Below are positions 83 through 33,459 of a stretch of 64,000 nt of DNA, in pieces. The translations under genes were made by a program, and so were the position numbers. Location: assembly GCF_000687555.1 (NCBI RefSeq), contig NZ_JHWJ01000014.1, positions 62,001 through 126,000 on the forward strand. The letters run 5' to 3'. Positions within the stretch are counted from its first letter, which is position 1. Every line of letters starts with the position of its first letter. The notes under the pieces were generated by a model, which saw only the letters and a program-made list of their open reading frames with translations, was not told the DNA's origin and searched no databases. Origin of the DNA: [Clostridium] aerotolerans DSM 5434. Lineage in GTDB: Bacteria; Bacillota; Clostridia; Lachnospirales; Lachnospiraceae.

Positions 83-1015
83 TTAACTATATATTGGAGT
101 AAGCCATTTAGAATACTCCTGTGAATCACCAGTTACAACTCTCAAATATTCTTTATGTATTTTATCAGTAATCGGGCCCTTCTCCCCATTATTTATCAGA
201 TACTTATCAATAGAAAAGATTGGCGTTATCTCCATTGCAGAACCACATAAAAAAGCTTCATCACACAAATACAGTTCCGTCCTATCAATACTCCGTTCCT
301 GAACTGCTAAACCCAGTTCTTTCGCTATAACTATTATTGTATCACGAGTTATACTTTCCAAAACACTATCTGTTATAAGCGGTGTAATTAGTACATTGTC
401 CCTTACTATAAATATACAAGACCCTGGACCTTCTGCTACCGTTCCACGGTTGTTTAGAAATATAGTAGTATCATAGCCATTATTTAAGGCTTCTATTTGA
501 GCCATCCTACTATTGATATAATTGGCACCGCACTTAATTCTTGGAGATATTGAATTATCATTAATACGTTGCCAAGAGCTCACACAACAATTCAATCCAT
601 TTTTATTATATTCAGAATTTGATTTTGCTTTTGGTATGGGTGAAATAAACATATTTATGGTTCCATGTGAAGCCCATGAGCCAAATCCATCTACAAATAT
701 TGTTTGTCTAACCGAGATATCTTCTCTATATTCATTAGCAATAATTGTATTAAATAATGCAGCTTCCAAATCTTTTATTGTATATTTATCTTCTAGCTGC
801 ATTAATTTTTGTGATCTCTTAAGTCTTTTTAAATGATCATTTAAACGAAATGCATACAGATTTTGTTTCTTATCACTCCAATAGCATCGAATTCCTTCAA
901 AAACGTTCAACCCAAATTGTGATGTAGGAGATAATACATTAATATTAGCCTCATTTACAGGCACTATTTTACCTCCTAACCACACCCTACGCTCATCGAC
1001 TGTGAATTTTGCCAT
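83..1015 (-). CDS. Class IV PLP aminotransferase, branched-chain type
   Basis: This 310-residue protein has the fold-IV (IlvE/D-amino-acid transaminase) pattern. The Schiff-base lysine is about residue 161 in RIKCGANYINS, the cofactor glutamate is in AEGPGSCIF near 195, and SITRDTII near 221 matches the phosphate-binding LxGITR motif. Family members move an amino group between glutamate and 2-oxo acids. GAGGAG precedes the ATG. It lies between a sugar phosphotransferase and a glycosyltransferase in a polysaccharide operon, which suggests a dedicated role in making an amino-bearing substituent rather than bulk leucine, isoleucine or valine (inference). The K-C-G-A in place of the common K-x-G-G-N also departs from housekeeping IlvE. 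A misplaced housekeeping copy remains possible. Confidence 0.85.
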   Translation of the reverse strand: MAKFTVDERRVWLGGKIVPVNEANINVLSPTSQFGLNVFEGIRCYWSDKKQNLYAFRLNDHLKRLKRSQKLMQLEDKYTIKDLEAALFNTIIANEYREDISVRQTIFVDGFGSWASHGTINMFISPIPKAKSNSEYNKNGLNCCVSSWQRINDNSISPRIKCGANYINSRMAQIEALNNGYDTTIFLNNRGTVAEGPGSCIFIVRDNVLITPLITDSVLESITRDTIIVIAKELGLAVQERSIDRTELYLCDEAFLCGSAMEITPIFSIDKYLINNGEKGPITDKIHKEYLRVVTGDSQEYSKWLTPIYS

Positions 1016-1053: not shown

Positions 1054-1746
1054 TTATTCTTCCTGATGTGCTCTTCTGATTATCTCGATTTCTTGCATTT
1101 TTGCAGACTCTTGGTCATCAATGATACCAGATATTTTATCTTCATATATGCTATTTCTCTTAAATACACTAGAAAATGTTTTTACAAGAATTAATAAATC
1201 TATTAGTATACCTCTTTTTATAAATAAGTCAATATACTCATTATCTAGATTAACCTTTTCATCCCACGTTATCTCATTTCTTCCTTTAATTTGGGCGTAA
1301 CCTGTTATACCAGGTAAAACACTAAAACGTCTCTTATATCGTCTATTTAAGGTTTCATAGTCACCTAATTCATATGTTACACAAGGTCTTGGTCCAACCA
1401 AACTCATATCCCCTTTAATTACGTTAATTAGCTGAGGAAGCTCATCTAAGCTAGTATTTCTTAAAAAATCACCAAATCTTGTCACTCTAGGATCATTTGA
1501 ATAATTAAACAGACCAGCTCCTGTCTTTTCTGCATTTACAATCATCGTACGGAACTTTAATATCATAAACTCTTTACCATTTAAAGATAAGCGGGCTTGC
1601 TTAAAAAAAATGGGCCCCCTTGAATCAATCTTTAAAAAAAGCGATATTACTATAAATAAAGGAATTAACAATAATAATAACGTAACTGAAATTAATATAT
1701 CTAATCCCCTTTTGAAATAAAGATCTGATTTTCTAAATTTATACAT
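1054..1746 (-). CDS. Initiating sugar-1-phosphate transferase (WcaJ/PglC family)
   Basis: This 230-residue bacterial sugar transferase has a single hydrophobic segment at about 16-38. It then carries the family motifs: KFRTM, and a C-terminal block with DELPQLINVIKGDMSLVGP followed by RP. Such enzymes move a sugar phosphate from a UDP-sugar to undecaprenyl phosphate at the inner face of the membrane, starting repeat-unit synthesis. It lacks the multi-span N-terminal domain of WbaP/WcaJ, so it is the short monotopic form. GGAG lies 10 bases before the ATG. With the flippase and polymerase upstream it completes a Wzx/Wzy-type pathway. The sugar transferred cannot be read from sequence. Confidence 0.92.
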   Translation of the reverse strand: MYKFRKSDLYFKRGLDILISVTLLLLLIPLFIVISLFLKIDSRGPIFFKQARLSLNGKEFMILKFRTMIVNAEKTGAGLFNYSNDPRVTRFGDFLRNTSLDELPQLINVIKGDMSLVGPRPCVTYELGDYETLNRRYKRRFSVLPGITGYAQIKGRNEITWDEKVNLDNEYIDLFIKRGILIDLLILVKTFSSVFKRNSIYEDKISGIIDDQESAKMQEIEIIRRAHQEE

Positions 1747-1812: not shown

Positions 1813-3039
1813 TTAATTGAATTCAAAGCTATAAGTATGAAATATATCATCAAAATTTTCTTTTCTCTTTATTAACCTAACCTCTTCTCCATCATATTCA
1901 AGGACGGAAAAGTTCGGCAAAATAAAAGGAGGTTTTAATACTATGGAATATGACCCTACATTATCAAATACTATGTAATCCTCAACAGCTAATTTTCCTG
2001 TATAATTACGATAGAGATAATCTGATTCAATACAAGTAAAACCTCCAAAATCAATATTATTAAATAATTCTAAATTGGAGTCATTATTATGATAAACATT
2101 TATGGGAGGATTTTTTTTGTTCAAGGTTGGATTTATATTGTAAATACTTCCTAATAAAGTAGCTATATACTTTCCTCTAATATTTTTTATAGATACTACC
2201 TTAGTAGCGAATTTCATTACATCTCCTACTAATGCACTCCCAGGTTCAATAAAAAGCATAGGCTTGATACCGCTATACTTTTGTGCAAATTCATTTGCCA
2301 CTATCTCAGCATATTCAACGTAAGATGGTATATATGAATCAAATTGCCTTTTTAATTCCTCACCCATTTTTCCATACAACCCACCGCCTAAGTCTATGCG
2401 TTCAGGAATCATATCAAGCTTTTCCTCTACCAAACTTATAATTCTTTCTGTTCGGGTATGCCAAGTATTTAAATCTCTTGTCGCAAAATGACAATGTAAT
2501 CCATTTAAATTAATATTGGTATAATGTTTTACAGATGATATAATATCATCAATTTCACTAGTATTAGTATCTATACCAAAACGTGAGATTAAGTTATCGT
2601 TAATAGGAAAATTACAGCGTATTCCAACATTAATTGTTTTGTCTACATTATCTTCAGCTATTTTACAAATCAGTTTTAATTCATTCTTTGAATCAATGTT
2701 AACAGTCCCACCTGCAAGTAATAATTCTCTAACTGCATCTTGGTCTTTGTAAGGTCCATTAAAAATGATTCTTTCAGGTTCTACACCAATGCGCTTCGCT
2801 AACTCATACTCCATATCCGATACAACTTCTGCATAACCTCCAAGATCATCTACCATCTTGCACAGCCTTGGAATATAATTTGTCTTATATGAATATGCTA
2901 TACAAAAATTAGAGTACCTTTCTTCAAAAGTCTCCTTTAGTTCTAGGTAATTTTTTTTAAATTGTTCGGTATCCAAAATATAAAAGGTTTCTCCATATTC
3001 TTTTTCAATCTGCTTTAAAAATTTATAATCTAGTTTCAT
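1813..3039 (-). CDS. Fold-III PLP decarboxylase (LysA/ornithine decarboxylase-like)
   Basis: This 408-residue alanine-racemase-fold decarboxylase places its PLP lysine in AYSYKTNY near residue 52. A glycine-rich GGGLYG loop follows, and a C-terminal FTCIESDYL block resembles the CESxD motif that supplies the catalytic cysteine. Family members decarboxylate D- or L-amino acids such as meso-diaminopimelate, ornithine or acyl-carrier-bound glutamate. The usual EPGR motif reads IEPGSALVG; the missing arginine argues for a substrate other than diaminopimelate (inference). The start at 3039 has AAAGGGA upstream. An in-frame ATG at 3060 has a poorer site. Either start overlaps the aldolase gene end, so the two are translationally coupled. 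Confidence 0.85.
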   Translation of the reverse strand: MKLDYKFLKQIEKEYGETFYILDTEQFKKNYLELKETFEERYSNFCIAYSYKTNYIPRLCKMVDDLGGYAEVVSDMEYELAKRIGVEPERIIFNGPYKDQDAVRELLLAGGTVNIDSKNELKLICKIAEDNVDKTINVGIRCNFPINDNLISRFGIDTNTSEIDDIISSVKHYTNINLNGLHCHFATRDLNTWHTRTERIISLVEEKLDMIPERIDLGGGLYGKMGEELKRQFDSYIPSYVEYAEIVANEFAQKYSGIKPMLFIEPGSALVGDVMKFATKVVSIKNIRGKYIATLLGSIYNINPTLNKKNPPINVYHNNDSNLELFNNIDFGGFTCIESDYLYRNYTGKLAVEDYIVFDNVGSYSIVLKPPFILPNFSVLEYDGEEVRLIKRKENFDDIFHTYSFEFN

Positions 3040-3874
3040 TAATCTTTCTGTCCCTTTCATTTATTTCCACTAAAATATTATTAACCAAATCCTTTACCAA
3101 TTTTTGATTAGACGAATAACACTCTTTGGACGATAACTCAATTAATTTTTCATATTCATGAATTTCACTAATTCCAATCCGAAATATCTCTTCAATTTGA
3201 TCAAGGTTCATATTAGAAGAATCACAAAAACCTCTTGATAGAATTGCACATTCGGAGCCTAATCTATAATGCTCTGATATAATATACTTTGCCGGTAATT
3301 TACCTTCATTTAAGCGAGCAATTCCACCAAAACCATACGGAATTTTGGCATCCTTTATTGTAGCACACATCTCTTCGATAATTCCATTAGCTAGTAATTC
3401 GAACATGAACTTTTTTTTATATTCTAAATGCAAATCATTCAAACCTATATGAATTTCATTTACTCCCGGAACTCTAACAATATCTTTTAAATTCATTTTG
3501 GCTTCTATAGTCTCTACTAAGAGCATAGTCTTAGCCCTACCATTAACCAAATATACAAAGCGGTTTACTTCATCTATCGTTCTAAACATTGGTAGCATTA
3601 CTATGTCTGCCCCCCGTCTAATCACCTCATCTATTTCTCTCTGTGATTCCTCATAGATTGAATTTACTCGTACAAGTAGATTTGAACTTTTTAAACAATT
3701 TTTAATATTAGATACATCTTCTATTACGTGATTTGATTTAACAGTATTTAAACCTTTCTGTCGCTCTTCCTTGCCTCTCCATTCTAAGTCAACCCAAATT
3801 CTATCAACACCGTATTTCTCCGCAATAATTGCCACCTCTGGCTTGTTTGTTATATACATTAACTTTAGAGACAT
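3023..3874 (-). CDS. HpcH/HpaI-family aldolase or citrate-lyase-beta-like enzyme
   Basis: This 283-residue TIM-barrel protein shows RIWVDLEW, LVRVNS, GADIVMLPMF, LLVETIEA and EIHIGLNDLHL. These are the family's phosphate/carboxylate and metal-binding strands, with the glutamate and aspartate metal ligands probably in VETIEA and LND. Class II aldolases of this family reversibly join pyruvate or another 2-oxo acid to an aldehyde; relatives are macrophomate synthase and CitE. The start has a good GGTGG/AAGGAT site. The gene sits 32 bases after the flippase and overlaps the decarboxylase. The substrate is unknown. An aldolase, aminotransferase and decarboxylase in one operon could build a short amino-alcohol or amino-acid substituent (inference). 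Confidence 0.82.
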   Translation of the reverse strand: MSLKLMYITNKPEVAIIAEKYGVDRIWVDLEWRGKEERQKGLNTVKSNHVIEDVSNIKNCLKSSNLLVRVNSIYEESQREIDEVIRRGADIVMLPMFRTIDEVNRFVYLVNGRAKTMLLVETIEAKMNLKDIVRVPGVNEIHIGLNDLHLEYKKKFMFELLANGIIEEMCATIKDAKIPYGFGGIARLNEGKLPAKYIISEHYRLGSECAILSRGFCDSSNMNLDQIEEIFRIGISEIHEYEKLIELSSKECYSSNQKLVKDLVNNILVEINERDRKINETRL

Positions 3875-3906: not shown

Positions 3907-5334
3907 TTATTTCTTTAAAAGCCTTTTAAAATTATCAATAAAAAACTTATCTCTTAAAATAATTAACATTAAAATATAAACTACAGCACCAATCGTTACT
4001 AATATCAAAGAATTTACTAATGATGGGACTAAATAAAAAGATAAAATCCTCAAAAAAATATACATTATGATACCTGCCATCAAATAATTTTTGCACATTT
4101 TTATAATTACTAATGCTGACAGTTCTTTCCTTACAATATATAGCTGCAAGGTCGCTATAATTACTTCAGCAGTTACTGACGAAAGTGATGCACCAACTGA
4201 TTGAAAGCGCGGTATTAAAATTAAATTCATCATAAAATTAATAATAGCTCCAACGCAAACACTTAAAGTAAAATAGTTTTGTCGTTTTGTGGGAACCATA
4301 TATTGTATTCCAGTAACATTGTTTATACCAATAGCTAAAACCAAAAAGCCAAGAATGGATAAAAGTACAACCACTTTATCATATCCATCTCCATAAAACC
4401 AGGGAACTAAATTTCCAGATACTCCAATTAAACCAAAACATAAAGGTATTCCTAAAAGCCAAACAAAATTATATCCTCTATACAAATAAAGCTTAACATT
4501 CTCAATATCATTTTTATTGTAATAATGTCCAATACGAGGTACCATAACCGTTCCTAATGATGTTACAATAGTTAATGCCATTTTAGATAATTTTAAAGCC
4601 TGCTCATAATACCCATTTTCGGAGGGTTCATTCGTAAAAATACCTATCATTGTCTTGTCAAGTACAGTATAGATTTGAATTGCAATGGTAGGTATAAATA
4701 ATGACATAACAAATTTAAAGTGGCGAAGTGGCCTTAATTTATTGAATTCAGGCAAATCTACATATAGTTTTAAAGAAGGCCATATTGATATTGTATTTAA
4801 AAATACAAGAAAGCACAAACCAAAGATGTATAAATTTAAATCACCTACTGACCTAATCATGAGAAACACGAATAAAATATTTAGTAATTTAGTAATTAAA
4901 TTACGAACAACTATCCTCCCAAATTCTTCCATACCAGCAAATAACCATGTAATATCAGTGGCCACCGCTATAATAGATAGGCTTTGAATAATATATATTA
5001 AAGAAAATCCTTTACTTAAAATAAATATAAAGTATAAAGCCAAAACAAAGAACGTGCTTATTATACTTAAAAGTTCTATCTCCCAAAAGGTTCTAGTTCT
5101 TTGTTTGCGATCATTTTGTAAATATGATATTTCTCTTTGACCATAAGTTGCCGTTCCCATAGCTGCAAACAGAGTGAAATATGATACTATAGAGGCTGTA
5201 AAACTATAAATACCGATTGCATCAACCCCCAATACACGGGATATATAAGGGGTTGTTAATAATGGTACAATTAGATTCAGTATCTGATATCCTGTATTAT
5301 ATATATAATTCATTTTAATACTTTTAGGTTTCAT
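3907..5334 (-). CDS. Oligosaccharide flippase, Wzx family
   Basis: This 475-residue protein is hydrophobic along its whole length with about 12-14 predicted membrane segments. It begins with the family-typical YNTGYQILNLIVPLLTTPYISRVLG. Wzx proteins move undecaprenyl-diphosphate-linked repeat units across the membrane. The gene lies between the radical SAM activase (13 bases upstream) and the aldolase. A typical AAGGAA site precedes the ATG. Together with the polymerase at the head of the operon it supports a Wzy-dependent polysaccharide rather than an ABC-exported one. It is distinct from the two other flippases in the window. Confidence 0.92.
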   Translation of the reverse strand: MKPKSIKMNYIYNTGYQILNLIVPLLTTPYISRVLGVDAIGIYSFTASIVSYFTLFAAMGTATYGQREISYLQNDRKQRTRTFWEIELLSIISTFFVLALYFIFILSKGFSLIYIIQSLSIIAVATDITWLFAGMEEFGRIVVRNLITKLLNILFVFLMIRSVGDLNLYIFGLCFLVFLNTISIWPSLKLYVDLPEFNKLRPLRHFKFVMSLFIPTIAIQIYTVLDKTMIGIFTNEPSENGYYEQALKLSKMALTIVTSLGTVMVPRIGHYYNKNDIENVKLYLYRGYNFVWLLGIPLCFGLIGVSGNLVPWFYGDGYDKVVVLLSILGFLVLAIGINNVTGIQYMVPTKRQNYFTLSVCVGAIINFMMNLILIPRFQSVGASLSSVTAEVIIATLQLYIVRKELSALVIIKMCKNYLMAGIIMYIFLRILSFYLVPSLVNSLILVTIGAVVYILMLIILRDKFFIDNFKRLLKK

Positions 5335-5347: not shown

Positions 5348-6109
5348 TTATATTTTACAAACCAAATTTTCTACACCTGCATTCAAAAAAAATTGTCTTA
5401 TCTCCTCAACTTCTGCATTGGAGATTGGAGGTGCGTAATACATTGATTTATTTAATGCTAAGTACTTCTTTTCTGCTAAATTATGTCCAAGTATAAGTTC
5501 TACATGTGGGTTTTTAAAGCTACTAACTAAATTAACAATATCTTGTACATTTTTTTTACTCGAGGTATAAGGGCTAATTAGTGGAATTCGAAAAACGATA
5601 TTAGCTTTACCCTCATATAAGATGCTTAGATTATTCAAATATTCATTTATATTACCACCTATGATACTCTTACAATATAACTCATCTAAAATTTTAATAT
5701 CTACATAAAAAAGATCTATATAATTTAATGCAATTTTAGTTAGAGAGGTAGGTACAAATAAAGCAGTCTCAACACATTGATGAATTCCTTCTTTCTTTAA
5801 ACGGTCCAGAAGAGGCACTAACTTTTTCATCCAAAGTAACGCCTCTCCTCCAGAAAAAGTAACACCACCATTTGTATCATAATAGATTCTATCTTTCATT
5901 ACCTCTTGATATAAATCGTCAATCCCCCACCACTGTCCTTGAAAATTTACATCCTGTTTATTTATATTAAACTCTATATTTTCTGGATTTGAACACCATG
6001 GACAGTGCAAAGAACATCCTTTTAAAAAAACTGTGGTACGTATACCTGGACCATCATGTAAGCTAAATCGTTGAATATTTGTAATTAGTAACCCCCTATT
6101 ATCTGTCAT
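5348..6109 (-). CDS. Glycyl radical enzyme activase (radical SAM)
   Basis: This protein of about 253 residues activates its partner by cleaving S-adenosylmethionine to form the backbone glycyl radical. The radical SAM motif is GCSLHCPWCSNPE (C-x3-C-x2-C), preceded by FSLHDGPGIRTTVFLKGC. A later GGVTFSGGEAL holds the SAM-binding GGE. It is short like pyruvate formate-lyase activase. It lacks the cysteine-rich ferredoxin insert common in activases of the dehydratase/lyase subclass; only scattered single cysteines follow. The gene starts inside the end of the glycyl radical enzyme gene. Start 6109 has GAGAG upstream, and an in-frame ATG at 6121 is an alternative. Confidence 0.93.
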   Translation of the reverse strand: MTDNRGLLITNIQRFSLHDGPGIRTTVFLKGCSLHCPWCSNPENIEFNINKQDVNFQGQWWGIDDLYQEVMKDRIYYDTNGGVTFSGGEALLWMKKLVPLLDRLKKEGIHQCVETALFVPTSLTKIALNYIDLFYVDIKILDELYCKSIIGGNINEYLNNLSILYEGKANIVFRIPLISPYTSSKKNVQDIVNLVSSFKNPHVELILGHNLAEKKYLALNKSMYYAPPISNAEVEEIRQFFLNAGVENLVCKI

Positions 6110-8075
6110 ATATACTCTCATTTTCCAGAGCTCTCTTTATAAGAATGTCTTTATATTCCTCAGGTAAATCACTAAAAAATGCACTAAACCCCCATACACG
6201 GACAATTAAATCAGGAAATTTATCAGGATTATTCTTAGCATCAATCAGCGTATTGCTACTTACTATGTTCATCTGCATTTGAAAAAAACCTTGTTTAATT
6301 GCGATTTGTAAAAATATAATAAACTTATCAAAATTCTTATTCATAAAATCAGGAGTAGAAATTATATCAACAACGTTACCGTTAAAGCCACCATTTCCAT
6401 AATCTATTTTAGAAGCAAATGACATTATTTCTGTAAATGCTGTTGTTTGGGACGCCGAAATATGTGTGGCGAAAGCATCTCCTGCTTTTCGTCCATCACA
6501 TGTCGCCCCAATTTCTTTACCACCTGTAAGATATGAGGGTGAACTCAAACCAACTTTATATCTTCCACCAAGATAATTTATCTTCACACTTATGACTGTT
6601 TTAACAGTATTAAATATCCTATTTGTCAATTCTATTACTTCCTCATTATCAGTGCCAAAATATGGCCTAATATTCATAAGTCTTTTGCGTATTTCATTAT
6701 CATTTATATAATTATTTTTAATAGCTTCATTTAATTGACTAATGGTTAATTCTTTATTTATAAAAACATATTTTTTTATATTTATTAATGAGTTAACAGT
6801 TGAGGCCAGCCCTATAGTTAATAAACCATAATTATTATACTTAGCACCTCCAAATGCTATATCAACTTTGCTTTTAACACATTCAGTAAAAAACATAGAG
6901 AGCAATGGGTCTTCACTCCATTTAATCGACTCAATCTGGCTTACTATATCCATAGAATATACTTTTAATTGCTCTAAGTAGAAATCCAAAAATTGTTCAT
7001 AGGAGTGAAATGTTTTTGCCATGTCCATAGTTTTTTTTAACGGTTCTACAAAGTTAATATTAATTAAGTTGTTTTGATCTAATGTTTTTCCTGGAACAAG
7101 TGGCTCCCAACAAGCTGAAACACAATAATTGTAAGCATCTTCATTTGCATACCCAAATTCTATCATTTTGGGAATAACTACATCGTCATTAGAAATAATA
7201 GGGCTTCCATTACCTGTAATCATGCATCTAACTGCTAATTCTAATAAGTCAATAGGAGTTTTTTCACAAACCCTTAGCATTAACTTAGGGTCAGGTAGGT
7301 TTAAGTTTATAACAACTTTTATAAATTCATACGTCAACCAATTACAAAAATATTCACCATTTTCCTCAAGCCCTCCAAGTATAATAAGCTGCCCAGTATC
7401 ACCAAGCAATTCTTGACTTTTATATTCATAATGATTATGTAAGATAATTAAAAAATCCTTAATTACTTCCGTGTCTTCATTATTGACGCTATCATTAATT
7501 ATTTCGTTTAATATCTTATCCAATCGTCCTAATCCCATTAATGTATGTCCACTCTGATGAAATAATGAGTTCCAGATTAATATTCTTTGAAAGGAATCTT
7601 CTAAATCACTAGCCCGGTGTGTCAATATCTTCAAGATTCTATTAGCTAAATAATTGGATTTTGAAGTTTGAAATGTAAATATATAATCAGCAATTTTTTT
7701 AATATATATTTCTATAGCATCTAACAAATCATCATATTTGTCATTATCTAGAGATTGATGATACTTTCGCAAATCTGCAATAGACCAATAAGAGCATTTC
7801 GAATAATCAATCGGCATATTTCCTAATAATTTATCATTATGACTCAGTATTAAATCTTCATCAATATAATAATAATATCTAGTTTCATTCCACATAAGCT
7901 TAATTTCTTTTAACATCAATAATAGTTGTTCTTTTTTAGTCCTTTTCTCCAAAATCACCCGGGAACTAAATATCGCATTTATTACTAAGGCAATTTTAGA
8001 TTTGTTTCTATTTATTTTTTTCATTCCTCGAGCTCTATCATAGATCAAATGTTCGTACTCTAAAAGTTTATTCAT
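6099..8075 (-). CDS. Short glycyl radical enzyme of unknown substrate
   Basis: This 658-residue enzyme of the pyruvate formate-lyase superfamily has the thiyl cysteine in SACWEP (about C322, with E324). This matches the GCVEP motif of diol dehydratase, choline lyase and related enzymes, not the CC pair of pyruvate formate-lyase. EPLVPGKT follows, as in those enzymes. The radical glycine is about G629 in RVWGFSAFF, 29 residues from the end. Family members are usually about 780-850 residues; here the region before the active-site cysteine is shorter by roughly 100. ATG 8075 follows GAGGAT; an upstream in-frame TTG at 8090 lacks a site. Its place between polymerase and flippase is unusual and suggests a role in making a glycan building block. 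Confidence 0.92.
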   Translation of the reverse strand: MNKLLEYEHLIYDRARGMKKINRNKSKIALVINAIFSSRVILEKRTKKEQLLLMLKEIKLMWNETRYYYYIDEDLILSHNDKLLGNMPIDYSKCSYWSIADLRKYHQSLDNDKYDDLLDAIEIYIKKIADYIFTFQTSKSNYLANRILKILTHRASDLEDSFQRILIWNSLFHQSGHTLMGLGRLDKILNEIINDSVNNEDTEVIKDFLIILHNHYEYKSQELLGDTGQLIILGGLEENGEYFCNWLTYEFIKVVINLNLPDPKLMLRVCEKTPIDLLELAVRCMITGNGSPIISNDDVVIPKMIEFGYANEDAYNYCVSACWEPLVPGKTLDQNNLININFVEPLKKTMDMAKTFHSYEQFLDFYLEQLKVYSMDIVSQIESIKWSEDPLLSMFFTECVKSKVDIAFGGAKYNNYGLLTIGLASTVNSLINIKKYVFINKELTISQLNEAIKNNYINDNEIRKRLMNIRPYFGTDNEEVIELTNRIFNTVKTVISVKINYLGGRYKVGLSSPSYLTGGKEIGATCDGRKAGDAFATHISASQTTAFTEIMSFASKIDYGNGGFNGNVVDIISTPDFMNKNFDKFIIFLQIAIKQGFFQMQMNIVSSNTLIDAKNNPDKFPDLIVRVWGFSAFFSDLPEEYKDILIKRALENESIYDR

Positions 8076-8175
8076 AAAAATTATCCTCAAATCTAATATT
8101 AATAAAAATTGCGTTAGAGTGGGCTGTACCTATTTAAATATATTCAGCATTATACTAAACTTATACCATCGTTAT

Positions 8176-8328: not shown

Positions 8329-9894
8329 TTACCTAATTGTTTCCTGTGAAGCACTTATACCCAATAGAAGCCAAAATATGGGAGTAGTAATAGGTAGATT
8401 AATATTAACAACTGCTTGAATGCTATAACAAATAATACCAAATGTAACAGCCATAAAATAAGGATTATTCCTTCTACATTTAATGCAATTTTGTATACTA
8501 CATATCAGAAACATCAAATAAGATAAAAGTCCTGCAAAACCGACCGTAAGTAGCAATTGAATGTATTCATTGTGGGCGCTATCAAATAATAACTTATATG
8601 GATTATTTGCTGTTTTAGCCAACAATAAAATGCCAAATGTTTCAGGACCATAACCAAAGATTTTTTTCCAAGTTGATAACCCTGAAAAGCATTCTATAGC
8701 ATTCCTCCATATGTAACCCCTATTGGTTCCCCAATCATCATCAAATAAAAGATATGAACTTAAACTTCCATATTTCAAAGCATTTCCTAAGACATTTGCA
8801 TCATATATAATATAAAAAACAATCACTAACAATATAGTTAAAGAAAGTAACCATATGTACTTTAGAATATTACCATATTCTTTTTCTTCTCTGAAATATT
8901 TACAACAGATATACTTGAAAGCAATAACAATGATCCACAGAATAATTACTAATAAATGTAGCCATTTAAAACTAATAATTATATTAAATGCGCTATTAAT
9001 TCCTATTACATTTTTGCTAAAATATGTATTAATCCAATCAATACACTGAACCACGGTAAGAAAAGTTGCTATAACTATCAAGTACTTTTGTAGACTGTTT
9101 TTATTATTAAATAGGAAAAGTGGAAGTAAGACAAACAATGATACTAAACTTAGATATGCATTATCACTAGCCCCCATAATAATTGCAAAAAAACTTATAA
9201 TCATACACATATAATAAAATATAGACTGCTTAATGCTTTTACTTAACGTGTATAATACGGTTGACATTGCAACAATTATACCTATATATGCTGTATAAGT
9301 ATTTATATTACCTATCGTCGATGTAAATATGTTACGTTCCTCAATTATTAGCGGAGCCTTAAAATTTAGAATATCCATTTGAAAATAATCAGTGATGCCA
9401 AATATACAAACCAACAATCCTGCAAAAAGTATAATATCAATATATTTATCTTTTAATGACCAAAGCCTGCTAACACAAAAGTAAGATACTATATACCAAG
9501 TGATTAGAAACAAACCTGTCAATCTACCTTCATTCCCCCAGAATGACTCATATACATAATCTGAAGTTATTGTAGATATAACACTAATAGCATAAAATAA
9601 TAATATAAAAAAATCAGCCAATGTAATACTTTTTATAAATGTCTTATATATTCCCTTTTTTACTGAGTTAACATTTTTTGTTTTGTTATATACAATACAA
9701 CCAATTAGTATAATAATCATGGCAATAGTACATGTACAAAAAAAGTAATACTTAACAATAAGAATATCAAAATATTTATCTCTAACAACCAAAGGTAGCC
9801 CAAAGCCTATTAATACTACATATACATTAATTAGAAAAGATATAAACCTAAAGTTATTATTATTTTCATGGCTTAAAATGTTTAATTCCTTCAT
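8329..9894 (-). CDS. O-antigen polymerase/ligase-like membrane protein (Wzy)
   Basis: This 521-residue polytopic protein has about 11-13 membrane segments. The family region near the C-terminus reads GYGPETFG followed by FDSAHNEYIQLLLTVG, the DxAHNExxQ signature of the O-antigen ligase/polymerase (Wzy_C) family, which lies in a large outer loop. Such proteins join undecaprenyl-linked repeat units outside the membrane. ATG 9894 has AAGGA seven bases upstream; an in-frame ATG at 9909 has none. It is the first gene of the AT-rich operon. The flippase and initiating transferase downstream favour polymerase over ligase. Confidence 0.9.
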   Translation of the reverse strand: MKELNILSHENNNNFRFISFLINVYVVLIGFGLPLVVRDKYFDILIVKYYFFCTCTIAMIIILIGCIVYNKTKNVNSVKKGIYKTFIKSITLADFFILLFYAISVISTITSDYVYESFWGNEGRLTGLFLITWYIVSYFCVSRLWSLKDKYIDIILFAGLLVCIFGITDYFQMDILNFKAPLIIEERNIFTSTIGNINTYTAYIGIIVAMSTVLYTLSKSIKQSIFYYMCMIISFFAIIMGASDNAYLSLVSLFVLLPLFLFNNKNSLQKYLIVIATFLTVVQCIDWINTYFSKNVIGINSAFNIIISFKWLHLLVIILWIIVIAFKYICCKYFREEKEYGNILKYIWLLSLTILLVIVFYIIYDANVLGNALKYGSLSSYLLFDDDWGTNRGYIWRNAIECFSGLSTWKKIFGYGPETFGILLLAKTANNPYKLLFDSAHNEYIQLLLTVGFAGLLSYLMFLICSIQNCIKCRRNNPYFMAVTFGIICYSIQAVVNINLPITTPIFWLLLGISASQETIR

Positions 9895-9943
9895 ATCTGT
9901 TCCTTCCATTTTTTTCTAATTTACTACATTTTTTTCTCATTTA

Positions 9944-11014: not shown

Positions 11015-12283
11015 CTAAACATGAACAAACTGATATTTGTCTAGTAGTGATACTAGACCGAACCTTTTTAATCTTTCGTTAGAAATAGTTGTGCTAAGAA
11101 TCGATGAATTAGCAACACGTGCATATCCTAATCTAGTATTAGCCCATCGAATTGCTTCATAGTGCTTAATCCCCAGTTTCCTGAGGTTTTATATCTTGTT
11201 TTCACTTTTCTTCCATTGCTTCCATGTACACTACGTAAGCAGAATCTGATATGTTTATCTAGCTCTCTACACAGCTTTTTCATATGACTTATTTTAAAAC
11301 AATTTACCCAACCTACTATTAACTGTTTAAGTTTTATAACTCGATATGTTGTACTGACTTCCCAATTTCTTGATGTCAATTGTTTCAACTTTTCCTTTAG
11401 CTTATTTACCGATATCTGGTGTGGTTTTGCCTTGAATTGATGACTAAATACATCACAGTAGAAACCAAAACCCAAGTAGTTTATTCCGTTAGGTCTATAC
11501 ACTTTACTCTTGCTAACATTAACTCTTAAACCCAGCTTCTCTTTCAAGAACTTTGTTACACTTACCATCACTCGGTTTGCATTTTTTCACTCTTTATCAA
11601 AATAGATACAGTTGTTTGCATATCTCACAATGAATAAGCCCCTTTCTTCGAGTTCTTCATCAAGTTCATTAATCAATGATACCTAGAAATGGGGATAGAT
11701 TTCCACCTTGTGGTGTTCCTATTATTGTTTCCTTATATTAGTCATTAATTATTACTCCACTTACGAGATATTTTCTGATTAGTGATATAACATCTCCATC
11801 TTTAACCGTCTTAGAAACGATGTTCATTAGCTTATCGTGATTTTCGTTGTCAAAAAACTTTTCTAAGTCTATATCTACTAACCACGTATAACCTTCATTC
11901 ATCATCTCAAAGCATTTGATGATTGCCATTTCTGCACATCTACCGGCCTGAAACTATAACTGCTATCACTGCACTGCTCCTCATAGACCGGCATCAGCAT
12001 TTGGGTTATCGCCTGTTGAATAAATCGGTCTGTTACTGCGGGAACGCCTAAATTCCTGATACCTCCGTCCAGTTTTGGTATTTCTATCCGTCTTACCGGC
12101 TGTAGTTTATACTTTCTGCATCTTATCTGTTCTTTGATTACTTCGCGATTCGCTCTCAGGTATTCTCCGAGATCCCCGACTTTCATTCCGTCTACTACAT
12201 ATGCACCTTTGTTGCGTTTGACTTGCAGGAATGCTTCATTCAAATTTTCCAAACTCAGTATCTGCTAGATTATCAGTTTTCAT
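11015..12283 (-). pseudogene. Group II intron reverse transcriptase/maturase, inactivated
   Basis: The fragments read in order as one protein. The N-terminal part has ENLNEAFLQVKRNKGA and RRIEIPKLDGGIRNLGVPAVTDR. A palm part has WLVDIDLEKFFD, then GTPQGGNLSPFL near 11700. The catalytic YADD box is YANN at 11611-11622, followed by an in-frame TGA at 11587-11589. The maturase domain (LKQLIVGWVNCF) runs from about 11571 to 11150. A shifted frame continues as RWANTRLGYARVANSSILSTT to a stop at 11015. At least three frameshifts plus the stop and the loss of both catalytic aspartates make it dead. No HNH endonuclease domain follows. Confidence 0.9.
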
Positions 12284-12770
12284 GTTCGTTACCTTCATTC
12301 TTCTCGTGGTTTCTTTGCCATTACCATACTTTTCAGTAGAGTGCTATATACACCTGATGTTGCAATGATACACAATCTCGATTCTAGTAACTGATAAGAT
12401 TGTTCAGTCATTCGCTCCTTCTGGCTTTCATCACTACTAAGGTTTCTGCTAACTTCTGACATATAATTCTTATATCACTGCAAGCCTTTGGTGTAACATA
12501 TGAGGCCTCCCCTGTTAAGAACGAACCACTTCCCTCCACCTATCCGCCAATTTACTTACTCCTACAAAAGTCGTAGTTATTGGACTTCACTTTGTTTTGC
12601 AAGCCTATCCCTCGGAGAAAAGCCTTATATGTGATTTCTTTACATCGGACCAGAGGTATGCCTCCAGATTCCGCCTCACGATGGACACCCTTGCTTTTGG
12701 CTATGTACTTCCCACCACGCATGGTATGTTCAGGACTTTCACCTGTAAGAATTCACCCAGCATGGTCGAA

Positions 12771-12837: not shown

Positions 12838-14556
12838 TTAGTTCTCTGTAAATACTCTCTTGATGTTACCGCTAGCTAATACTTCGTAGCAACGATCATT
12901 ACCATCTTTTGCTTTGCTCTTGCCCTTCTGAACAGTACCAGCTGTATTAACTAATCTATACTCTACATTAGTATTAGCAGCAACTGCAGTTGATACATCA
13001 TATTCCTCAGAATACTTATCAGCATTTGTTACATCGTTTTCTACTCCAAGCGCTCTCATTTCAGTGATAAATTCGTCAGTAGTAAGAAGCTCCATATGAG
13101 AGTAGTTAGAACCATCTTTAGTTGCTTTAACTACAGCATACTTATCATCTTTATCTGCTGCCATTAACATACCAGACTGATAATATTTCTTATTATCAAC
13201 ACCTGTCTTACCGGCGCCCTTATAGCTACCAGACTTGTTAAGAAGGAAGCTATTAGATTCGCCATCAATGTCGATATTTACTTTGTTAGTCTTCATCGCT
13301 CCGTCATCGCCTGAACCGAAGTAATAGAACTTGTAGCCTGAATTTTCCCAAGATGAAGCATGCTTCTTAAAGCCATCTACTGTATCAAACTTATAGTTGG
13401 TATCTTCTACCAGAGCATGCTCAGGCTCAGCAGAAGTATCATTCTTAATAATCTCTACGATGGTTTTGTTATCAGAAGCAAGCTGAAGGAATCTATATCC
13501 ATCAATCATAACACCACTCTTGTCGAAAGCATATTTCTTTCCACTGATTGTCTTGATTTCGCCTGCTACAAGCTTACCATCTTTATCAGAATAATACCAA
13601 TTTTCAGAATCATCATTGAAGTCGCCTTCATCTAAGTAAGAACCTGGTACAACCTGGAACCAACCCTTAGTTTTTCTAGCGCCATCTTCTGGGCTACCAT
13701 AATATCTGAAGCCCTTTGTATAAGCTGCTGTTCCCTGAGTAGCAGTAGCTGTGGTTGGTGTAGCATCCCAGTTAACCCACTCAGCATTCATACGGCCATT
13801 TTCATCAAAGCTGTACTTTTTACCATTAATGGTCTCACCTTTTTTGTCAACCATCTTCTTGCCGTTACCCTTGAAGTAGAACCAACGATCCTGTTCTTCA
13901 TCATCAAAAGTATCTTTGCTGGAAACGCCCTTACTATCATCATCCTGCCACTGAGTATCTGTGATATGAAGGAATACCCATCCATTAGCCTGAGCTCCGT
14001 CATTTTCATCGCCACAGTAGTAAAGACCGCCTGTTGAGCCATCACCTCTCCAAGCATCATCACCAGTTTCTCTCTGGCCTGATTCGTTAATCCAGCCATA
14101 TAACATCTTACCTTCTTCATCAAAGATGTACTTTTTACCATTAATTGTCTTGAAAGAAGCTGTTCCGCTTGAACTTGCAGTTTTGTAAGCCTTACCATTG
14201 TTACCAAAATAGTACCAATTGTTAACTGGCTCATTATCATCACTACCATCATAATCAGCATTCTCAACGGAAACCCACTTATTAGCAACCATGGAACCGT
14301 TCTCATCTACATAGTAGTAGTTATCATTGTATTCAACGATAACGTCGGTAGCCATCTCGCCATCTTCGTTTAAGTAGAACCAGTTGTCACCGGATTTCTC
14401 CCACTTCTCTGTTTCCTTGTCGCCGTTCTTGTCATAGTACACCCATGTACCATTTTCTTCCTGCCAGCCAGTAGCTGCGAAAGAGGACATGGAAGCGCCT
14501 AAAGCAAGAAGTGCTGCTGTTGATAAAACAGCAACTAATTTAGTCTGCTTTCTCAT
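12838..14556 (-). CDS. Secreted choline-type cell-wall-binding repeat protein
   Basis: This 572-residue protein starts with a signal peptide (MRKQTKLVAVLSTAALLALG, cleaved near SSFAA). About ten cell-wall-binding (CW_binding_1) repeats follow, with aromatic motifs such as NWFYLNEDGEMATD, NGKKYIFDEEGKMLYGW and NGKKYSFDENGRM. Between repeats are acidic, Asp-rich inserts. The last 150 residues lack clear repeats and no enzyme domain was recognised. Repeats of this type bind choline on teichoic acid or similar glycan. ATG 14556 follows GGAGAG; the open frame runs further upstream but without a leader. A consensus promoter and perfect terminator suggest strong monocistronic expression. It may be a structural surface protein. 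Confidence 0.88.
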   Translation of the reverse strand: MRKQTKLVAVLSTAALLALGASMSSFAATGWQEENGTWVYYDKNGDKETEKWEKSGDNWFYLNEDGEMATDVIVEYNDNYYYVDENGSMVANKWVSVENADYDGSDDNEPVNNWYYFGNNGKAYKTASSSGTASFKTINGKKYIFDEEGKMLYGWINESGQRETGDDAWRGDGSTGGLYYCGDENDGAQANGWVFLHITDTQWQDDDSKGVSSKDTFDDEEQDRWFYFKGNGKKMVDKKGETINGKKYSFDENGRMNAEWVNWDATPTTATATQGTAAYTKGFRYYGSPEDGARKTKGWFQVVPGSYLDEGDFNDDSENWYYSDKDGKLVAGEIKTISGKKYAFDKSGVMIDGYRFLQLASDNKTIVEIIKNDTSAEPEHALVEDTNYKFDTVDGFKKHASSWENSGYKFYYFGSGDDGAMKTNKVNIDIDGESNSFLLNKSGSYKGAGKTGVDNKKYYQSGMLMAADKDDKYAVVKATKDGSNYSHMELLTTDEFITEMRALGVENDVTNADKYSEEYDVSTAVAANTNVEYRLVNTAGTVQKGKSKAKDGNDRCYEVLASGNIKRVFTEN

Positions 14557-14622
14557 AATAAATGCACTCTCCTTTTTCTTCTTGAAATACTTTTCTGAAA
14601 TTCCTAATAGCATTACGAGGTA

Positions 14623-14651
14623 ATTATACTTCCTCAAATGGAAATTATCAA
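14623..14651 (-). promoter_or_regulatory. Promoter of the 12838-14556 surface protein gene
   Basis: On the minus strand TTGATA (14646-14651) and a perfect TATAAT (14623-14628) are 17 bases apart. This leaves a leader of about 60 bases before the ATG. It is one of the strongest core promoters in the window. Confidence 0.8.
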
Positions 14652-14921
14652 TACTTTTTTTACATTTTTTGCATATTTTGCAAAATATAAATAAAATTAA
14701 CATTTCCGGAAGAAGCTATCAATTCCTCCATCACATGGAACAGTATAATACATATTCTGGGAAATTACTATAACTTTTCTCTGTTCATTTTCTTACATAA
14801 TTATTACGAAACTGGATTTTGCATCAGCAATTGTACTTTTATCAATACAAATCACGTGTTTAGGGAGAAAGCAGGGTCTGGATGCGTCTTTTTAGATTGA
14901 TATTTTATTATGAATGTAATA

Positions 14922-14949
14922 TTGATTTTTACCATTTCAATGGTATAAT
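14922..14949 (+). promoter_or_regulatory. Promoter of the cytidylyltransferase/choline kinase fusion gene
   Basis: TTGATT (14922-14927) and TATAAT (14944-14949) have a 16-base spacer and a TGG extended -10. The leader would be about 90 bases. It shares the 340-base divergent region 14704-15045 with the minus-strand surface protein promoter. The rest of that region is AT-rich and shows no other clear element. Confidence 0.7.
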
Positions 14950-15045
14950 GTTCACATAATCATTATTTGGCATTAAGATTGAACATGCTATTATATTTTA
15001 TTTTATACTATCATACTTATTATTTATATACGGAGGCGTAATGCT

Positions 15046-16872
15046 ATGGATCGTAATGTTATTGTTTGCCGCTCAATTTTTGAAAATCCTGCTGTGACTC
15101 AAAGAGAGCTTGCAAAGGAACTTCATATTTCCCTGGGAACAGCTAATAGTCTGGTTAAGGAATGTCTGGATAAACAGCTGATTGAAGTTAACAAGGGAAA
15201 TGAAACTTATGAACTTCTTCCCGAAGGACAAGCTCTGCTGGAGAAGCATAAAGTGGATGGTGCTGTTATCATTGCGGCCGGCTTCGGTTCCCGCTTTGTT
15301 CCATTGACCTTTGAAACACCAAAAGGACTCCTTGAAGTGTTTGGTGAGCGTATGATTGAACGCCAGATCCGCCAGCTTCATGAGGTAGGAATCACTGATA
15401 TTACCATTGTAGTTGGATATTTGAAAGAAAAGTTTGAATACCTTATTGATAAATATCAGGTCAAGCTTTTATATAATCCGGAATACTCCAAGAAGAATAC
15501 ACTTACCACCATTTATCAAGCCAGAGAGCTTTTTCGCGGAAAAAACATATATGTTCTATCATCTGATAACTGGATGAGACACAACATGTACCACGCCTAT
15601 GAAGGCGGTGCGTGGTACTCCTCCTCTTATATGGAAGGCGAAACTTCAGAATGGTGTCTTGATTATAATAAGAAAGGACGCATTCTAAACGTTTTTGTTG
15701 GAGGTAAGGACCAGTGGGTCATGTATGGGCCTGCTTTTTTCTCTAAATCATTTTCCAGTAAGTTTCTACCAGTACTGGAAGAATACTACCATCTTCCAGG
15801 AACAGAGCAGTTCTACTGGGAAAATGTCTATATGGAAATGCTATCCGGGGAAGCAGCAAAGCGACTGCCGAATCTCCCAGAGGCAAAGGAAGAAATTGAG
15901 ATGTATATTAACCGGAGACAGGCGGATGAGGTCTATGAGTTTGAAAACCTGGAAGAGCTTCGTCGGTTTGATGTGAAATATCAGCGCCACTCGGATAATG
16001 AAGCGATGGAACTGGTTTCTAAAGTGTTTCAGGTTTCGGAATCTGAAATCACAGAAATCCGCTGTTTGAAGGCTGGTATGACCAACAAATCATTCCTCTT
16101 TAAAATTAAGGACCGCCATTATATCTGCCGGATTCCAGGGCCTGGTACTGAGCTCTTAATTAATAGGCAGCAGGAAAAGGAAGTTTATGATGCCACCCAT
16201 GACCTGGGAATCACAGAAAAGATCGTTTACTTTAGCGGGGAGACGGGATATAAGATTGCAGAATTTTATGAAGGGGCTCATAATGCAGATGCGGAAAATG
16301 AAGATGAAATCAGTCGCTGTTTAAAGCTTGTGCGCAAATTCCACCAGTCTGGTTTAAAGGTCTCTCATTCCTTTGATTTTAAAGAAAGAATTGAGTTTTA
16401 TGAAAAGCTTTGCAAAGCGAGTGGTGACATTTTATTTGATGATTATAACCTGGTACGGGGGTGTATGAAGGAGCTTTTGAATCGCCTTGACGGGCTTGGA
16501 CATGAGAAGGTGCTCTCTCATCTGGATACGGTAGTGGATAATTTCCTCATTCTTCCTGATGGAGATATCAGGCTGATCGACTGGGAATATGCAGGTATGT
16601 GCGATCCATTAGTGGACATTGCCATGTGCGCAATCTATTCCTATTATAATGAAGAGCAAACGGATCGGCTCATTGAGATTTATTTTGAACGTAAACCTTC
16701 CATGGAGGAACGGTTTACGGTTTATGCATATATGGCTCTTGGAGGATTTTTATGGAGTCTATGGGCTATTTATAAGGCTTCTCTTGGAGAGGAGTTTGGC
16801 GAATATACGATTATCATGTATCGGTACGCCAAGAACTACTATAAAAAATGTAGTAAAATTGTATTAGAATGA
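15046..16872 (+). CDS. Fusion: winged helix, LicC-like cytidylyltransferase, LicA-like choline kinase
   Basis: This 608-residue protein has three parts. Residues 1-66 form a winged helix (TQRELAKELHISLGTANSLV). Residues 70-310 are a nucleotidyltransferase with AAGFGSRF at 77-84, TPKGLLEV, and SSDNW for metal binding. Residues 315-608 are a choline/aminoglycoside-kinase fold with HLDTVVDNF near 491 (HxDxxxxN) and LIDWEYAG near 511. The kinase would phosphorylate choline, and the LicC part would make CDP-choline, the donor for phosphocholine on surface glycan. Choline-repeat genes lie on both sides, supporting the role. In pneumococcus LicA and LicC are separate proteins. The winged helix may sense choline or CDP-choline (inference). 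No LicD transferase is in the window. Confidence 0.9.
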   Translation: MDRNVIVCRSIFENPAVTQRELAKELHISLGTANSLVKECLDKQLIEVNKGNETYELLPEGQALLEKHKVDGAVIIAAGFGSRFVPLTFETPKGLLEVFGERMIERQIRQLHEVGITDITIVVGYLKEKFEYLIDKYQVKLLYNPEYSKKNTLTTIYQARELFRGKNIYVLSSDNWMRHNMYHAYEGGAWYSSSYMEGETSEWCLDYNKKGRILNVFVGGKDQWVMYGPAFFSKSFSSKFLPVLEEYYHLPGTEQFYWENVYMEMLSGEAAKRLPNLPEAKEEIEMYINRRQADEVYEFENLEELRRFDVKYQRHSDNEAMELVSKVFQVSESEITEIRCLKAGMTNKSFLFKIKDRHYICRIPGPGTELLINRQQEKEVYDATHDLGITEKIVYFSGETGYKIAEFYEGAHNADAENEDEISRCLKLVRKFHQSGLKVSHSFDFKERIEFYEKLCKASGDILFDDYNLVRGCMKELLNRLDGLGHEKVLSHLDTVVDNFLILPDGDIRLIDWEYAGMCDPLVDIAMCAIYSYYNEEQTDRLIEIYFERKPSMEERFTVYAYMALGGFLWSLWAIYKASLGEEFGEYTIIMYRYAKNYYKKCSKIVLE

Positions 16873-16935
16873 CATTTTTGGAAATTTGTCTGCAAATCGT
16901 AATAAAATATTTAGGTATTCTATCTGCTCCTATGC

Positions 16936-16941
16936 TATAAT
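16936..16941 (+). promoter_or_regulatory. Extended -10 promoter before the choline-binding protein gene
   Basis: TATAAT at 16936-16941 is preceded by TGC, an extended -10. No good -35 hexamer lies at the right spacing. It is about 50 bases before the ATG of the next gene and just after the choline kinase fusion stop. Confidence 0.5.
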
Positions 16942-16988
16942 GGCACTATGTGTAAATAGTTATGTTAGAACAGGAGGAAGAGAACGGT

Positions 16989-18092: not shown

Positions 18093-18113
18093 TTGATTTG
18101 ATTTAGTATCTGT

Positions 18114-18151
18114 GTGGGTATCTGCAACAAGGCGCAGGTACCCACTTTTTT
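18114..18151 (+). terminator. Rho-independent terminator
   Basis: GTGGGTA (18114-18120) with TCTGC pairs with GCAGGTACCCAC ending at 18145, followed by six T. It lies 20 bases after the preceding stop and separates that gene from the lysozyme gene. Confidence 0.9.
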
Positions 18152-18210
18152 GCTTTATTACATAAAAAGTTACCAAATAATAGAATTACAAGCGATAAGG
18201 AGGTTTTGTT

Positions 18211-21685: not shown

Positions 21686-21740
21686 AATTTATGCTCCTCA
21701 AGCAGGTACCTTCATACTCCCAATAGGAAGGGCTGCGTTG

Positions 21741-23126: not shown

Positions 23127-23140
23127 GCTTCACCTTACCC

Positions 23141-24973: not shown

Positions 24974-25003
24974 CTCATCCTCCTGTGTTTTGGGCGAACC
25001 CGT

Positions 25004-25639: not shown

Positions 25640-25640
25640 G

Positions 25641-26222: not shown

Positions 26223-26251
26223 AATGTTCTGATTCTCCTGGTGCCGTGTTC

Positions 26252-28026: not shown

Positions 28027-28078
28027 ACCGGATTCCTCCTGTTATACTCATCATTAGTTCTAACGTCGAAACATTCTT

Positions 28079-28084
28079 ATTATA
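28079..28084 (-). promoter_or_regulatory. Extended -10 promoter before the heptose genes
   Basis: On the minus strand a perfect TATAAT (28079-28084) is preceded by TGA. No convincing -35 lies at 17 bases. It is about 50 bases before the hddC ATG and follows a hairpin at 28140-28170, so it could restart transcription there. Confidence 0.5.
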
Positions 28085-28139
28085 TCATAATTCCTTTGGA
28101 ACAATCCACTATAATTCCCATTAAGCTGGAAAAGACCGT

Positions 28140-28170: not shown

Positions 28171-28200
28171 TCCAGTCTCTTATCCCGATTTTAACAGGCC

Positions 28201-32080: not shown

Positions 32081-32093
32081 TGATGCTTCCTCC

Positions 32094-33437: not shown

Positions 33438-33459
33438 TGAATCCTCCATACTAAGCTTG

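What the first reader, a model, noticed from the sequence alone, without database searches (positions are those of the whole stretch)
5348..8075. A short glycyl radical enzyme and activase embedded in a Wzx/Wzy polysaccharide operon
Seen: a 658-residue enzyme with the thiyl cysteine in SACWEP, radical glycine in RVWGFSAFF, and an overlapping activase, sitting between polymerase and flippase genes. Known: CxE-type glycyl radical enzymes are dehydratases or C-N/C-O/C-S lyases, usually 780-850 residues, and belong to catabolic loci. Inference: an oxygen-sensitive radical reaction is used to make a surface-glycan component. The shortened N-terminal half and CWEP instead of CVEP suggest a separate subfamily.
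Basis: partly seen in the sequence, partly recalled or inferred. Interest (0 to 1): 0.82.

Follow-up and report, generated by a model that had tools for sequence, protein, structure and literature searches.

The report
Radical enzyme for building surface sugars
A gut-type anaerobic bacterium carries an oxygen-sensitive radical enzyme inside the genes that build its surface sugar coat, and related enzymes sit in sugar-coat gene clusters of distant anaerobes including archaea, which suggests an unrecognised way of making unusual surface sugars without oxygen.

Summary
Confirmed: an intact 658-residue glycyl radical enzyme (GRE) with SACWEP and RVWGFSAFF, its overlapping activase, a Wzy-like protein and a Wzx flippase share one AT-rich glycan operon. 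The gene is not truncated. It belongs to a clade (34 of 34 sampled members, SH-aLRT 100) apart from CutC, HypD, PflD and a glycerol-dehydratase-like GRE; the nearest comparators are short GREs in sugar-catabolic loci. Of 83 non-redundant loci gathered by GRE sequence, 78 have a glycosyltransferase, flippase or similar glycan gene within five genes, 75 have the activase and 50 a Wzx within two genes. Three GREs and one activase are fused to a glycosyltransferase. Members occur in four bacterial phyla and two archaeal lineages, mostly as MAGs. Cys and Glu of GRE eliminases are kept, but the His and Asp of glycerol-dehydratase-like sequences are Asn, and the activases lack auxiliary cysteine motifs. 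Best reading: a radical dehydratase that turns a sugar diol into a deoxy-carbonyl sugar during glycan assembly. Substrate and reaction are unproven; galactofuranose is a weakly supported candidate. The paper searches run found no description of it. New variant of a known kind, high interest.

The parts
6099..8090 (-). Glycyl radical enzyme of the glycan-locus clade, 658 aa from ATG at 8075 (663 aa from TTG at 8090; residue numbers in this report count from the TTG)
7104..7112 (-). C327-W328-E329: thiyl Cys and catalytic Glu; W in 81 of 81 members compared
7068..7073 (-). N340-N341: N341 in 81 of 81, where the GDH-like and PflD sequences have Asp
7818..7820 (-). N91: Asn in 78 of 81, where GDH-like, PflD and HypD sequences have His
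6189..6191 (-). G634, radical glycine in RVWGFSAFF
5348..6121 (-). GRE-activating radical SAM enzyme, compact type without auxiliary CxxCxxC motif
5993..6016 (-). CX3CX2C of the activase (CSLHCPWC)
3907..5334 (-). Wzx-type flippase, nearest by path to flippases of other GRE loci
8329..9909 (-). Wzy/O-antigen-ligase-like membrane protein (PF04932, 34 bits)
1054..1746 (-). Polyprenyl-phosphate sugar-1-phosphate transferase (initiating enzyme)
   Evidence: PF02397
3023..3874 (-). HpcH/HpaI aldolase-like protein (39.6 bits), overlaps the next gene; not clustered with a gene of another GRE locus
1813..3060 (-). PLP decarboxylase of the DapDC/ornithine type; not clustered with a gene of another GRE locus
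83..1015 (-). Branched-chain-type class IV aminotransferase (PRK06606 307 bits, over its cut-off of 279)

Best explanation
The protein is a biosynthetic glycyl radical eliminase of a distinct clade dedicated to surface-glycan assembly. Shown by sequence: intact GRE and activase, a clade of its own, recurrent glycan-locus company, glycosyltransferase fusions. Inferred: the activase makes the radical at G634; G634 makes a thiyl radical at C327; the thiyl takes a hydrogen from a carbinol carbon of a sugar residue; E329 acts as base and a neighbouring hydroxyl leaves as water; the hydrogen returns, giving a deoxy-carbonyl sugar with no outside reductant. The substrate is most likely the sugar handled by the partner GT2 glycosyltransferase, either while attached to the polyprenyl-diphosphate carrier or as its nucleotide donor, and the partner Wzx then exports the altered repeat unit.
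For: Catalytic Cys and Glu in 81 of 81 members (the radical Gly is also in 81 of 81, but one of the two search patterns contained it). Activase in 75 of 83 loci by cluster, 76 by HMM. Glycan gene within five genes in 78 of 83 loci that were chosen by GRE sequence alone. None of 6 comparator GRE loci matched any of eight glycan-gene HMMs. GT2-GRE single ORFs in L052, L053 and L066, and a GT2-activase single ORF in L074. Flippases of GRE loci cluster on their tree: 9 label changes against 17.8 in shuffles, 0 of 500 as low. Asn replaces the His and Asp of glycerol-dehydratase-like sequences, which argues for a different hydroxylated substrate. Precedent for GREs on cyclic sugars: PflD and YbiW cleave 1,5-anhydro-hexitol 6-phosphates (passage of PMC12441222); the sister GREs sit beside genes that read as sugar transport and sugar breakdown.
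Against: No activity, structure or glycan chemistry is at hand; structure prediction was off. No single reductase, aminotransferase or nucleotide-sugar gene accompanies all members, so neither substrate nor product is pinned down. Eight loci have no separate activase gene in the cluster: one has it fused (L074), and L026, L029, L060, L068, L071, L078 and L084 show none, some of them on short contigs or near an end. E329 is also present in GRE decarboxylases (recalled), so elimination is not proven. Distance correlations between GRE and neighbours are confounded by host phylogeny. The flippase controls come from one bacterial family, while the GRE-locus flippases come from several.
Confidence: 0.6

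Rival explanations
1. The GRE makes a small non-sugar precursor (for example an aldehyde from glycerol, a polyol phosphate or an amino alcohol) that is then built into the glycan; in the window the HpcH/HpaI aldolase, PLP decarboxylase and aminotransferase would extend it.
For: These three enzymes lie in the same operon. GRE dehydratases of small diols are well known. Some relatives lie within 10 kb of CDP-alcohol-type genes (IspD-like in 10 of 83, LicD in 10 of 83).
Against: The aldolase and decarboxylase cluster with no gene of another GRE locus; the aminotransferase cluster has two other loci, L056 and L073. The GT2 fusions and the flippase link favour a sugar-level step. The His/Asp pair of the glycerol-dehydratase-like sequence is Asn/Asn.
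Confidence: 0.22
2. A GRE of anaerobic catabolism that happens to travel with mobile glycan loci.
For: The nearest comparators are catabolic by their neighbours; the region is AT-rich, 26-31% GC against 38-46% further on; distribution is patchy: at least 7 of 299 genomes in the family sample and at least 3 of 344 in the order sample, few candidates being scored per genome.
Against: Glycan neighbours in 78 of 83 loci over several phyla and two domains, and gene fusions with a glycosyltransferase in three loci.
Confidence: 0.07
3. A GRE decarboxylase or C-C/C-N lyase acting on a uronic acid or amino sugar of the glycan rather than a dehydratase.
For: UDP-glucose-dehydrogenase-like genes occur in 9 of 83 loci and just outside the window; CxE is shared with GRE decarboxylases (recalled).
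Against: Such genes are in a minority of loci; NCBIfam decarboxylase models score far below cut-off (120 and 96 bits against 1100 and 1150).
Confidence: 0.08

Closest known systems
PflD / YbiW (1,5-anhydromannitol- and 1,5-anhydroglucitol-6-phosphate cleaving GREs)
   Same: GRE family, CxE motif, act on cyclic sugar derivatives; PDB entries of both are among the matches by sequence (8yjo E 1.4e-47, 8yjn 2.9e-37; the top match is 8id0, 1.7e-51)
   Different: Catabolic; a PflD sequence (L153) falls outside the clade, has 155 residues before the N-terminal His column against 90, CVE, and His and Asp where this clade has Asn
Glycerol / 1,2-propanediol dehydratase GREs (1r8w, 5i2a)
   Same: CxE chemistry, perhaps 1,2-diol dehydration; both entries match by sequence
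   Different: His and Asp of the own-genome GDH-like sequence become N91 and N341; that GDH-like protein lies in another part of the tree. 1r8w itself was not in the tree
CutC, HypD, HpsG/HpfG
   Same: Domains and activase dependence
   Different: 155-170 bits against cut-offs of 1000-1100; CutC and HypD sequences lie in another part of the tree
Short GREs of sugar-catabolic loci (L164, L166, L168)
   Same: Nearest comparators; short N terminus, CWE, Asn at both positions, D231, K269 and W before the radical Gly
   Different: Neighbours read as sugar ABC transporters, kinases, aldolase and glycosidases (named from sequence); activases have auxiliary CxxCxxC motifs
GlfT1 galactofuranosyltransferase (best NCBIfam glycosyltransferase match of most partner GT2 enzymes tested)
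   Same: Best match for 5 of 6 partner GT2 proteins tested
   Different: 70-88 bits, far below the 330 cut-off; in the window's own locus a rhamnosyltransferase model is nearly level (73 against 69 bits); sugar not established

Membership tests
Glycyl radical enzyme superfamily | PFL-like and Gly_radical domains with thiyl Cys and radical Gly | tested here: met
Glycyl radical enzyme superfamily | Partner radical SAM activase | tested here: met
   Window: TIGR02494 at 217.9 bits, over its 174.35 cut-off
Glycyl radical enzyme superfamily | Glycyl radical formed in vitro or in vivo | not testable with these tools
   needs EPR
CutC, HypD, sulfopropanediol dehydratases, indoleacetate and 4-hydroxyphenylacetate decarboxylases | Curated NCBIfam cut-off | tested here: not met
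   96-170 bits against 1000-1150
Glycerol-dehydratase-type GRE | Substrate-binding His and Asp (H164 and D447, recalled) | tested here: not met
   Asn at both aligned positions; alignment only, no structure
Glycan-locus GRE clade (proposed here) | Monophyly apart from characterised GREs | tested here: met
   34 of 34 in one clade, SH-aLRT 100; 81 of 81 together in a FastTree run, whose printed support at that node after re-rooting was 0.47
Glycan-locus GRE clade (proposed here) | Glycan-assembly neighbours | tested here: met
   78 of 83 loci; 60 further relatives were not returned and not examined
Wzx/Wzy-dependent polysaccharide locus | Flippase, polymerase, initiating transferase, chain-length protein | tested here: inconclusive
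   Flippase and initiating transferase clear, polymerase marginal; the chain-length protein outside the window is named from sequence only, no Pfam match
Galactofuranose pathway | GRE loci tied to UDP-galactopyranose mutase (UGM) and GlfT1 | tested here: inconclusive
   UGM within five genes of Wzx in 23 of 53 GRE loci against 3 of 20 controls (p 0.029, uncorrected), within three genes 15 of 53 against 3 of 20 (p 0.36); UGM occurs in 273 of 299 family genomes anyway

The most novel reading that the evidence does not exclude
A glycyl radical dehydratase that works directly on a carrier-linked or glycosyltransferase-bound sugar, perhaps the exocyclic 1,2-diol of a galactofuranose-like residue, so that anaerobes of several bacterial phyla and two archaeal lineages make a deoxy-carbonyl sugar by protein-radical chemistry, with the GRE, activase and flippase moving as one cassette.
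Probability: 0.35. Interest if true: 0.92.

Novelty: new variant of a known kind. Interest (0 to 1): 0.78.

Why it matters
Characterised GREs other than ribonucleotide reductase are, to my knowledge, almost all fermentative or degradative. A GRE clade dedicated to glycan assembly would put protein-radical chemistry into cell-envelope biosynthesis, offer a reductant-free route to deoxy or carbonyl sugars under anoxia, predict glycans that can be made only without oxygen, and give a genetic marker for finding them in gut and rumen bacteria and methanogens.

Tried and rejected
Truncated or decayed gene: rejected, because relatives from several phyla share length and motifs. One relative, in L017, is broken; it was described only. 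It counts as one of the 83 loci (its 458 aa piece lies in the GRE cluster) and was left out of A1, A2 and the trees. A row printed as 'CutC_G046x' is mislabelled by me: it is L157, an uncharacterised GRE that passes only the PFL2-3 cut-off.

Absence of the GRE from the 20 control loci is no evidence: the controls were taken from genomes that had no match.

Galactofuranose as the certain substrate: not accepted. Presence of UGM in the genome is uninformative (273 of 299). The near-locus excess is weak: of 15 uncorrected tests, UGM gave p 0.029 within five or seven genes and 0.36 within three; the GT2b cluster gave 0.029, 0.055 and 0.10 within three, five and seven genes; LicD and RmlB-type genes were rarer in GRE loci in five of six tests at p below 0.02. 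Homologues of the fused glycosyltransferase occur in genomes with no detected UGM (G139, G075).

Fused glycosyltransferase confined to GRE loci: not so. Its nearest stand-alone relatives in the set compared (51-57%) are in GRE loci, but relatives at 36-41% are in ten family genomes, of which only G250 is among the seven GRE genomes.

Viral copies: none confirmed in a scan with peptide patterns from the window protein. Plasmids: only remote GREs, at most 27% identity in the 20 listed of 91 records. Operon signals: promoter-like sites at chance level, no terminator-like site between 8090 and 8329. Mantel-type correlations were positive for every pair tried and so not decisive.

Literature: I saw listings only, most of them capped lists of larger sets, and many listed papers do not hold the GRE term at all. 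The sharpest was 'glycyl radical enzyme' with 'flippase': five papers, none on this by title. The library lacks most subscription journals, and the two GRE papers sought by id were not held.

Full report
What is there. On the minus strand, from 9909 down to 83, lie in order of transcription a Wzy-like protein, the GRE, its activase, a Wzx flippase, an HpcH/HpaI aldolase-like protein, a PLP decarboxylase, an initiating sugar transferase and a branched-chain-type aminotransferase. Beyond the left edge of the window the cluster goes on with three GT2 glycosyltransferases, a nucleotide-sugar (UDP-glucose-type) dehydrogenase, a CapD/PseB-like protein and what looks like a chain-length protein (L018; the last named from its sequence only). 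The island is AT-rich, 26-31% GC up to about 12000, then 38-46% up to 30000.

Subfamily. Against NCBIfam the GRE reaches no curated cut-off; the best are PFL2-3 at 234 of 678 and NF007437 (PflD type) at 201 of 1109 bits. In a sample of 299 genomes of its family, 7 including its own have a relative at E<=1e-80; in a sample of 344 genomes of its order, 3 including its own at E<=1e-160, and none of the three other same-genus genomes listed. Only the best three or four candidates per genome were scored in most rows, so these are lower bounds. A scan of species genomes with two peptide patterns found 140 relatives; the tool kept the best 80 in 79 loci, and the other 60 were not seen. With the window, L012, L014 and L017 that makes 83 non-redundant loci. 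A tree of 63 GREs puts the 34 sampled members in one clade, SH-aLRT 100, on a stem of 1.05 changes per column, apart from 29 comparators; the sister is three short GREs (support 97). The comparators include CutC and HypD sequences over their cut-offs, a glycerol-dehydratase-like protein of the same genome, so called for its motif, and a PflD sequence, so called because its Cys region equals that of PDB 8yjo. Deep branches elsewhere are weak: 25 of 60 inner branches are under 80. A FastTree run of 110 sequences also kept 81 of 81 together, though the value printed at that node after re-rooting was 0.47.

Residues. In 81 members C327, W328, E329, N341 and G634 are invariant, N91 is Asn in 78 and H182 is His in 77. 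The G634 region was part of one search pattern, so its constancy is partly by selection. The aligned glycerol-dehydratase-like and PflD sequences have His at 91 and Asp at 341. CWE and the two Asn are shared with the sister, so they mark a larger short-GRE group. R169, Q179, K224, S516, H543 (80 of 81) and D575 are this clade's own against the seven comparators printed of 29, except that HypD also has K at 224. Which of them line the pocket is not known here.

Activase. Of 75 clustered activases 73 show CX3CX2C and two do not, as called; none has a CxxCxxC motif after residue 40; all 6 comparator activases do have one. The partner is thus distinct too.

Neighbourhoods. Loci were chosen by GRE sequence only. 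Activase: 75 of 83 by cluster, 76 by HMM. Wzx of one cluster: 52 by cluster, 53 by HMM, 50 within two genes. GT2b cluster (a mixed set with GlfT1-like members): 36 by cluster, 43 by HMM. UGM: 28. 78 of 83 have a glycosyltransferase, flippase, UGM, initiating transferase, LicD or ABC exporter gene within five genes. Of the other five, L021 is a two-gene contig, L046 has a gene that reads like DUF4422 beside the GRE, L092 and L097 have IspD-like genes, and L090 has a gene of a cluster that reads like CMP-sugar synthetases (readings from sequence). Twenty control loci around flippases of GRE-less family genomes have no activase of this type; GRE absence there is by construction.

Flippase. In the family survey with the window flippase, 48 of 299 genomes match at E<=1e-60; among the 47 others the GRE genomes G250, G269 and G046 rank first to third (58, 53, 51%) and G098 fifth (49%), but G225 ranks low (33%), G079 is not among them, and G292, G188 and G268 (50, 48, 46%) had no GRE match. 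On a tree of 53 GRE-locus and 20 control flippases the label needs 9 changes against 17.8 in shuffles (0 of 500 as low); the smallest well-supported set with the window holds 30 GRE-locus and 2 control rows. One of the 53 is a second, remote flippase of L088 that I failed to leave out.

Fusions. L052, L053 and L066 encode a GT2 domain and the GRE in one ORF of 988-1017 aa; L074 encodes GT2 and activase in one ORF of 746 aa. Of six fused or partner GT2 proteins tested, five match GlfT1 best among glycosyltransferase models, at 70-88 bits against a cut-off of 330; in the window's own locus a rhamnosyltransferase model is close behind (69 against 73). The sixth, in L074, matches a rhamnosyltransferase model best. 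Three other GT2 enzymes of such loci match TuaG or PRK10073 instead.

Spread. Members occur in Bacillota, Spirochaetota, Synergistota, Actinomycetota (one MAG), Methanobrevibacter and one Thermoplasmata MAG. Two Methanobrevibacter loci share a contig with archaeal genes over curated cut-offs, TgtA in L022 and archaeal topoisomerase I in L028, so those two are not simple binning errors. By their titles most records are MAGs, many from gut or rumen.

How it may work. The steps are given under best explanation. The radical chemistry follows from knowledge of GRE eliminases (recalled); sugar-directed GREs are known from PflD and YbiW (one passage in PMC12441222; the original paper was not seen). 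The review PMC11574389 (passages) says that many abundant gut GREs have unknown functions. PMC11528403 (passages) concerns GRE relatives with another residue at the radical site (Ala, Ser or Thr, recalled); this clade has Gly.

What stays open. The sugar, the position of attack, whether donor or carrier-linked, and the fate of the carbonyl. UGM near GRE-locus flippases (23 of 53 against 3 of 20 within five genes, p 0.029; 15 of 53 against 3 of 20 within three, p 0.36) and GT2b within three genes (16 of 53 against 1 of 20, p 0.029) hint at a furanose, but the controls are from one family and 15 uncorrected tests were run.

Scores.

Noticed in passing
L180, L181, L182 (GREs of 693, 669 and 697 aa): Sister short GREs lie beside genes that read as sugar ABC transporters, KDG-kinase and KDPG-aldolase-like enzymes and glycosidases: perhaps an undescribed radical route of sugar breakdown.
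   Followed up: partly
window 3023-3874, 1813-3060, 83-1015: HpcH/HpaI aldolase-like, PLP decarboxylase and aminotransferase genes in a polysaccharide operon, the first two overlapping: possibly a dedicated amine or amino-acid substituent pathway.
   Followed up: partly
window 11128-12685: Group II intron RNA match (RF02001, 88 bits) with a separate maturase-domain piece and a weak reverse-transcriptase piece (below cut-off) next to the operon; looks like a degraded intron.
   Followed up: no
window 12838-20031: Three choline-binding-repeat proteins, one with a GH25 domain, around a nucleotidyltransferase-kinase fusion that resembles LicC-LicA (recalled; NCBIfam matches below cut-off): suggests phosphocholine on the surface.
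   Followed up: partly
window 20750-34842 and 61377-62477: A second glycan region with ABC exporter and heptose-type genes (named from sequence) and a UDP-galactopyranose mutase (399 bits, over its cut-off).
   Followed up: partly
L045 and L096 (Breznakiella homolactica): Two Wzx-GRE-activase-UGM loci about 27 kb apart in one complete spirochaete chromosome.
   Followed up: no
L081 2551-4584 and 12107-14140: Two full-length GREs of this clade in one locus.
   Followed up: no
L017: A broken relative with an in-frame stop, still beside a flippase and an activase gene; intact relatives exist in other genomes.
   Followed up: no
own genome, L099 and L098: The same genome also encodes CutC (1673 bits, over cut-off) and a glycerol-dehydratase-like GRE.
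   Followed up: yes
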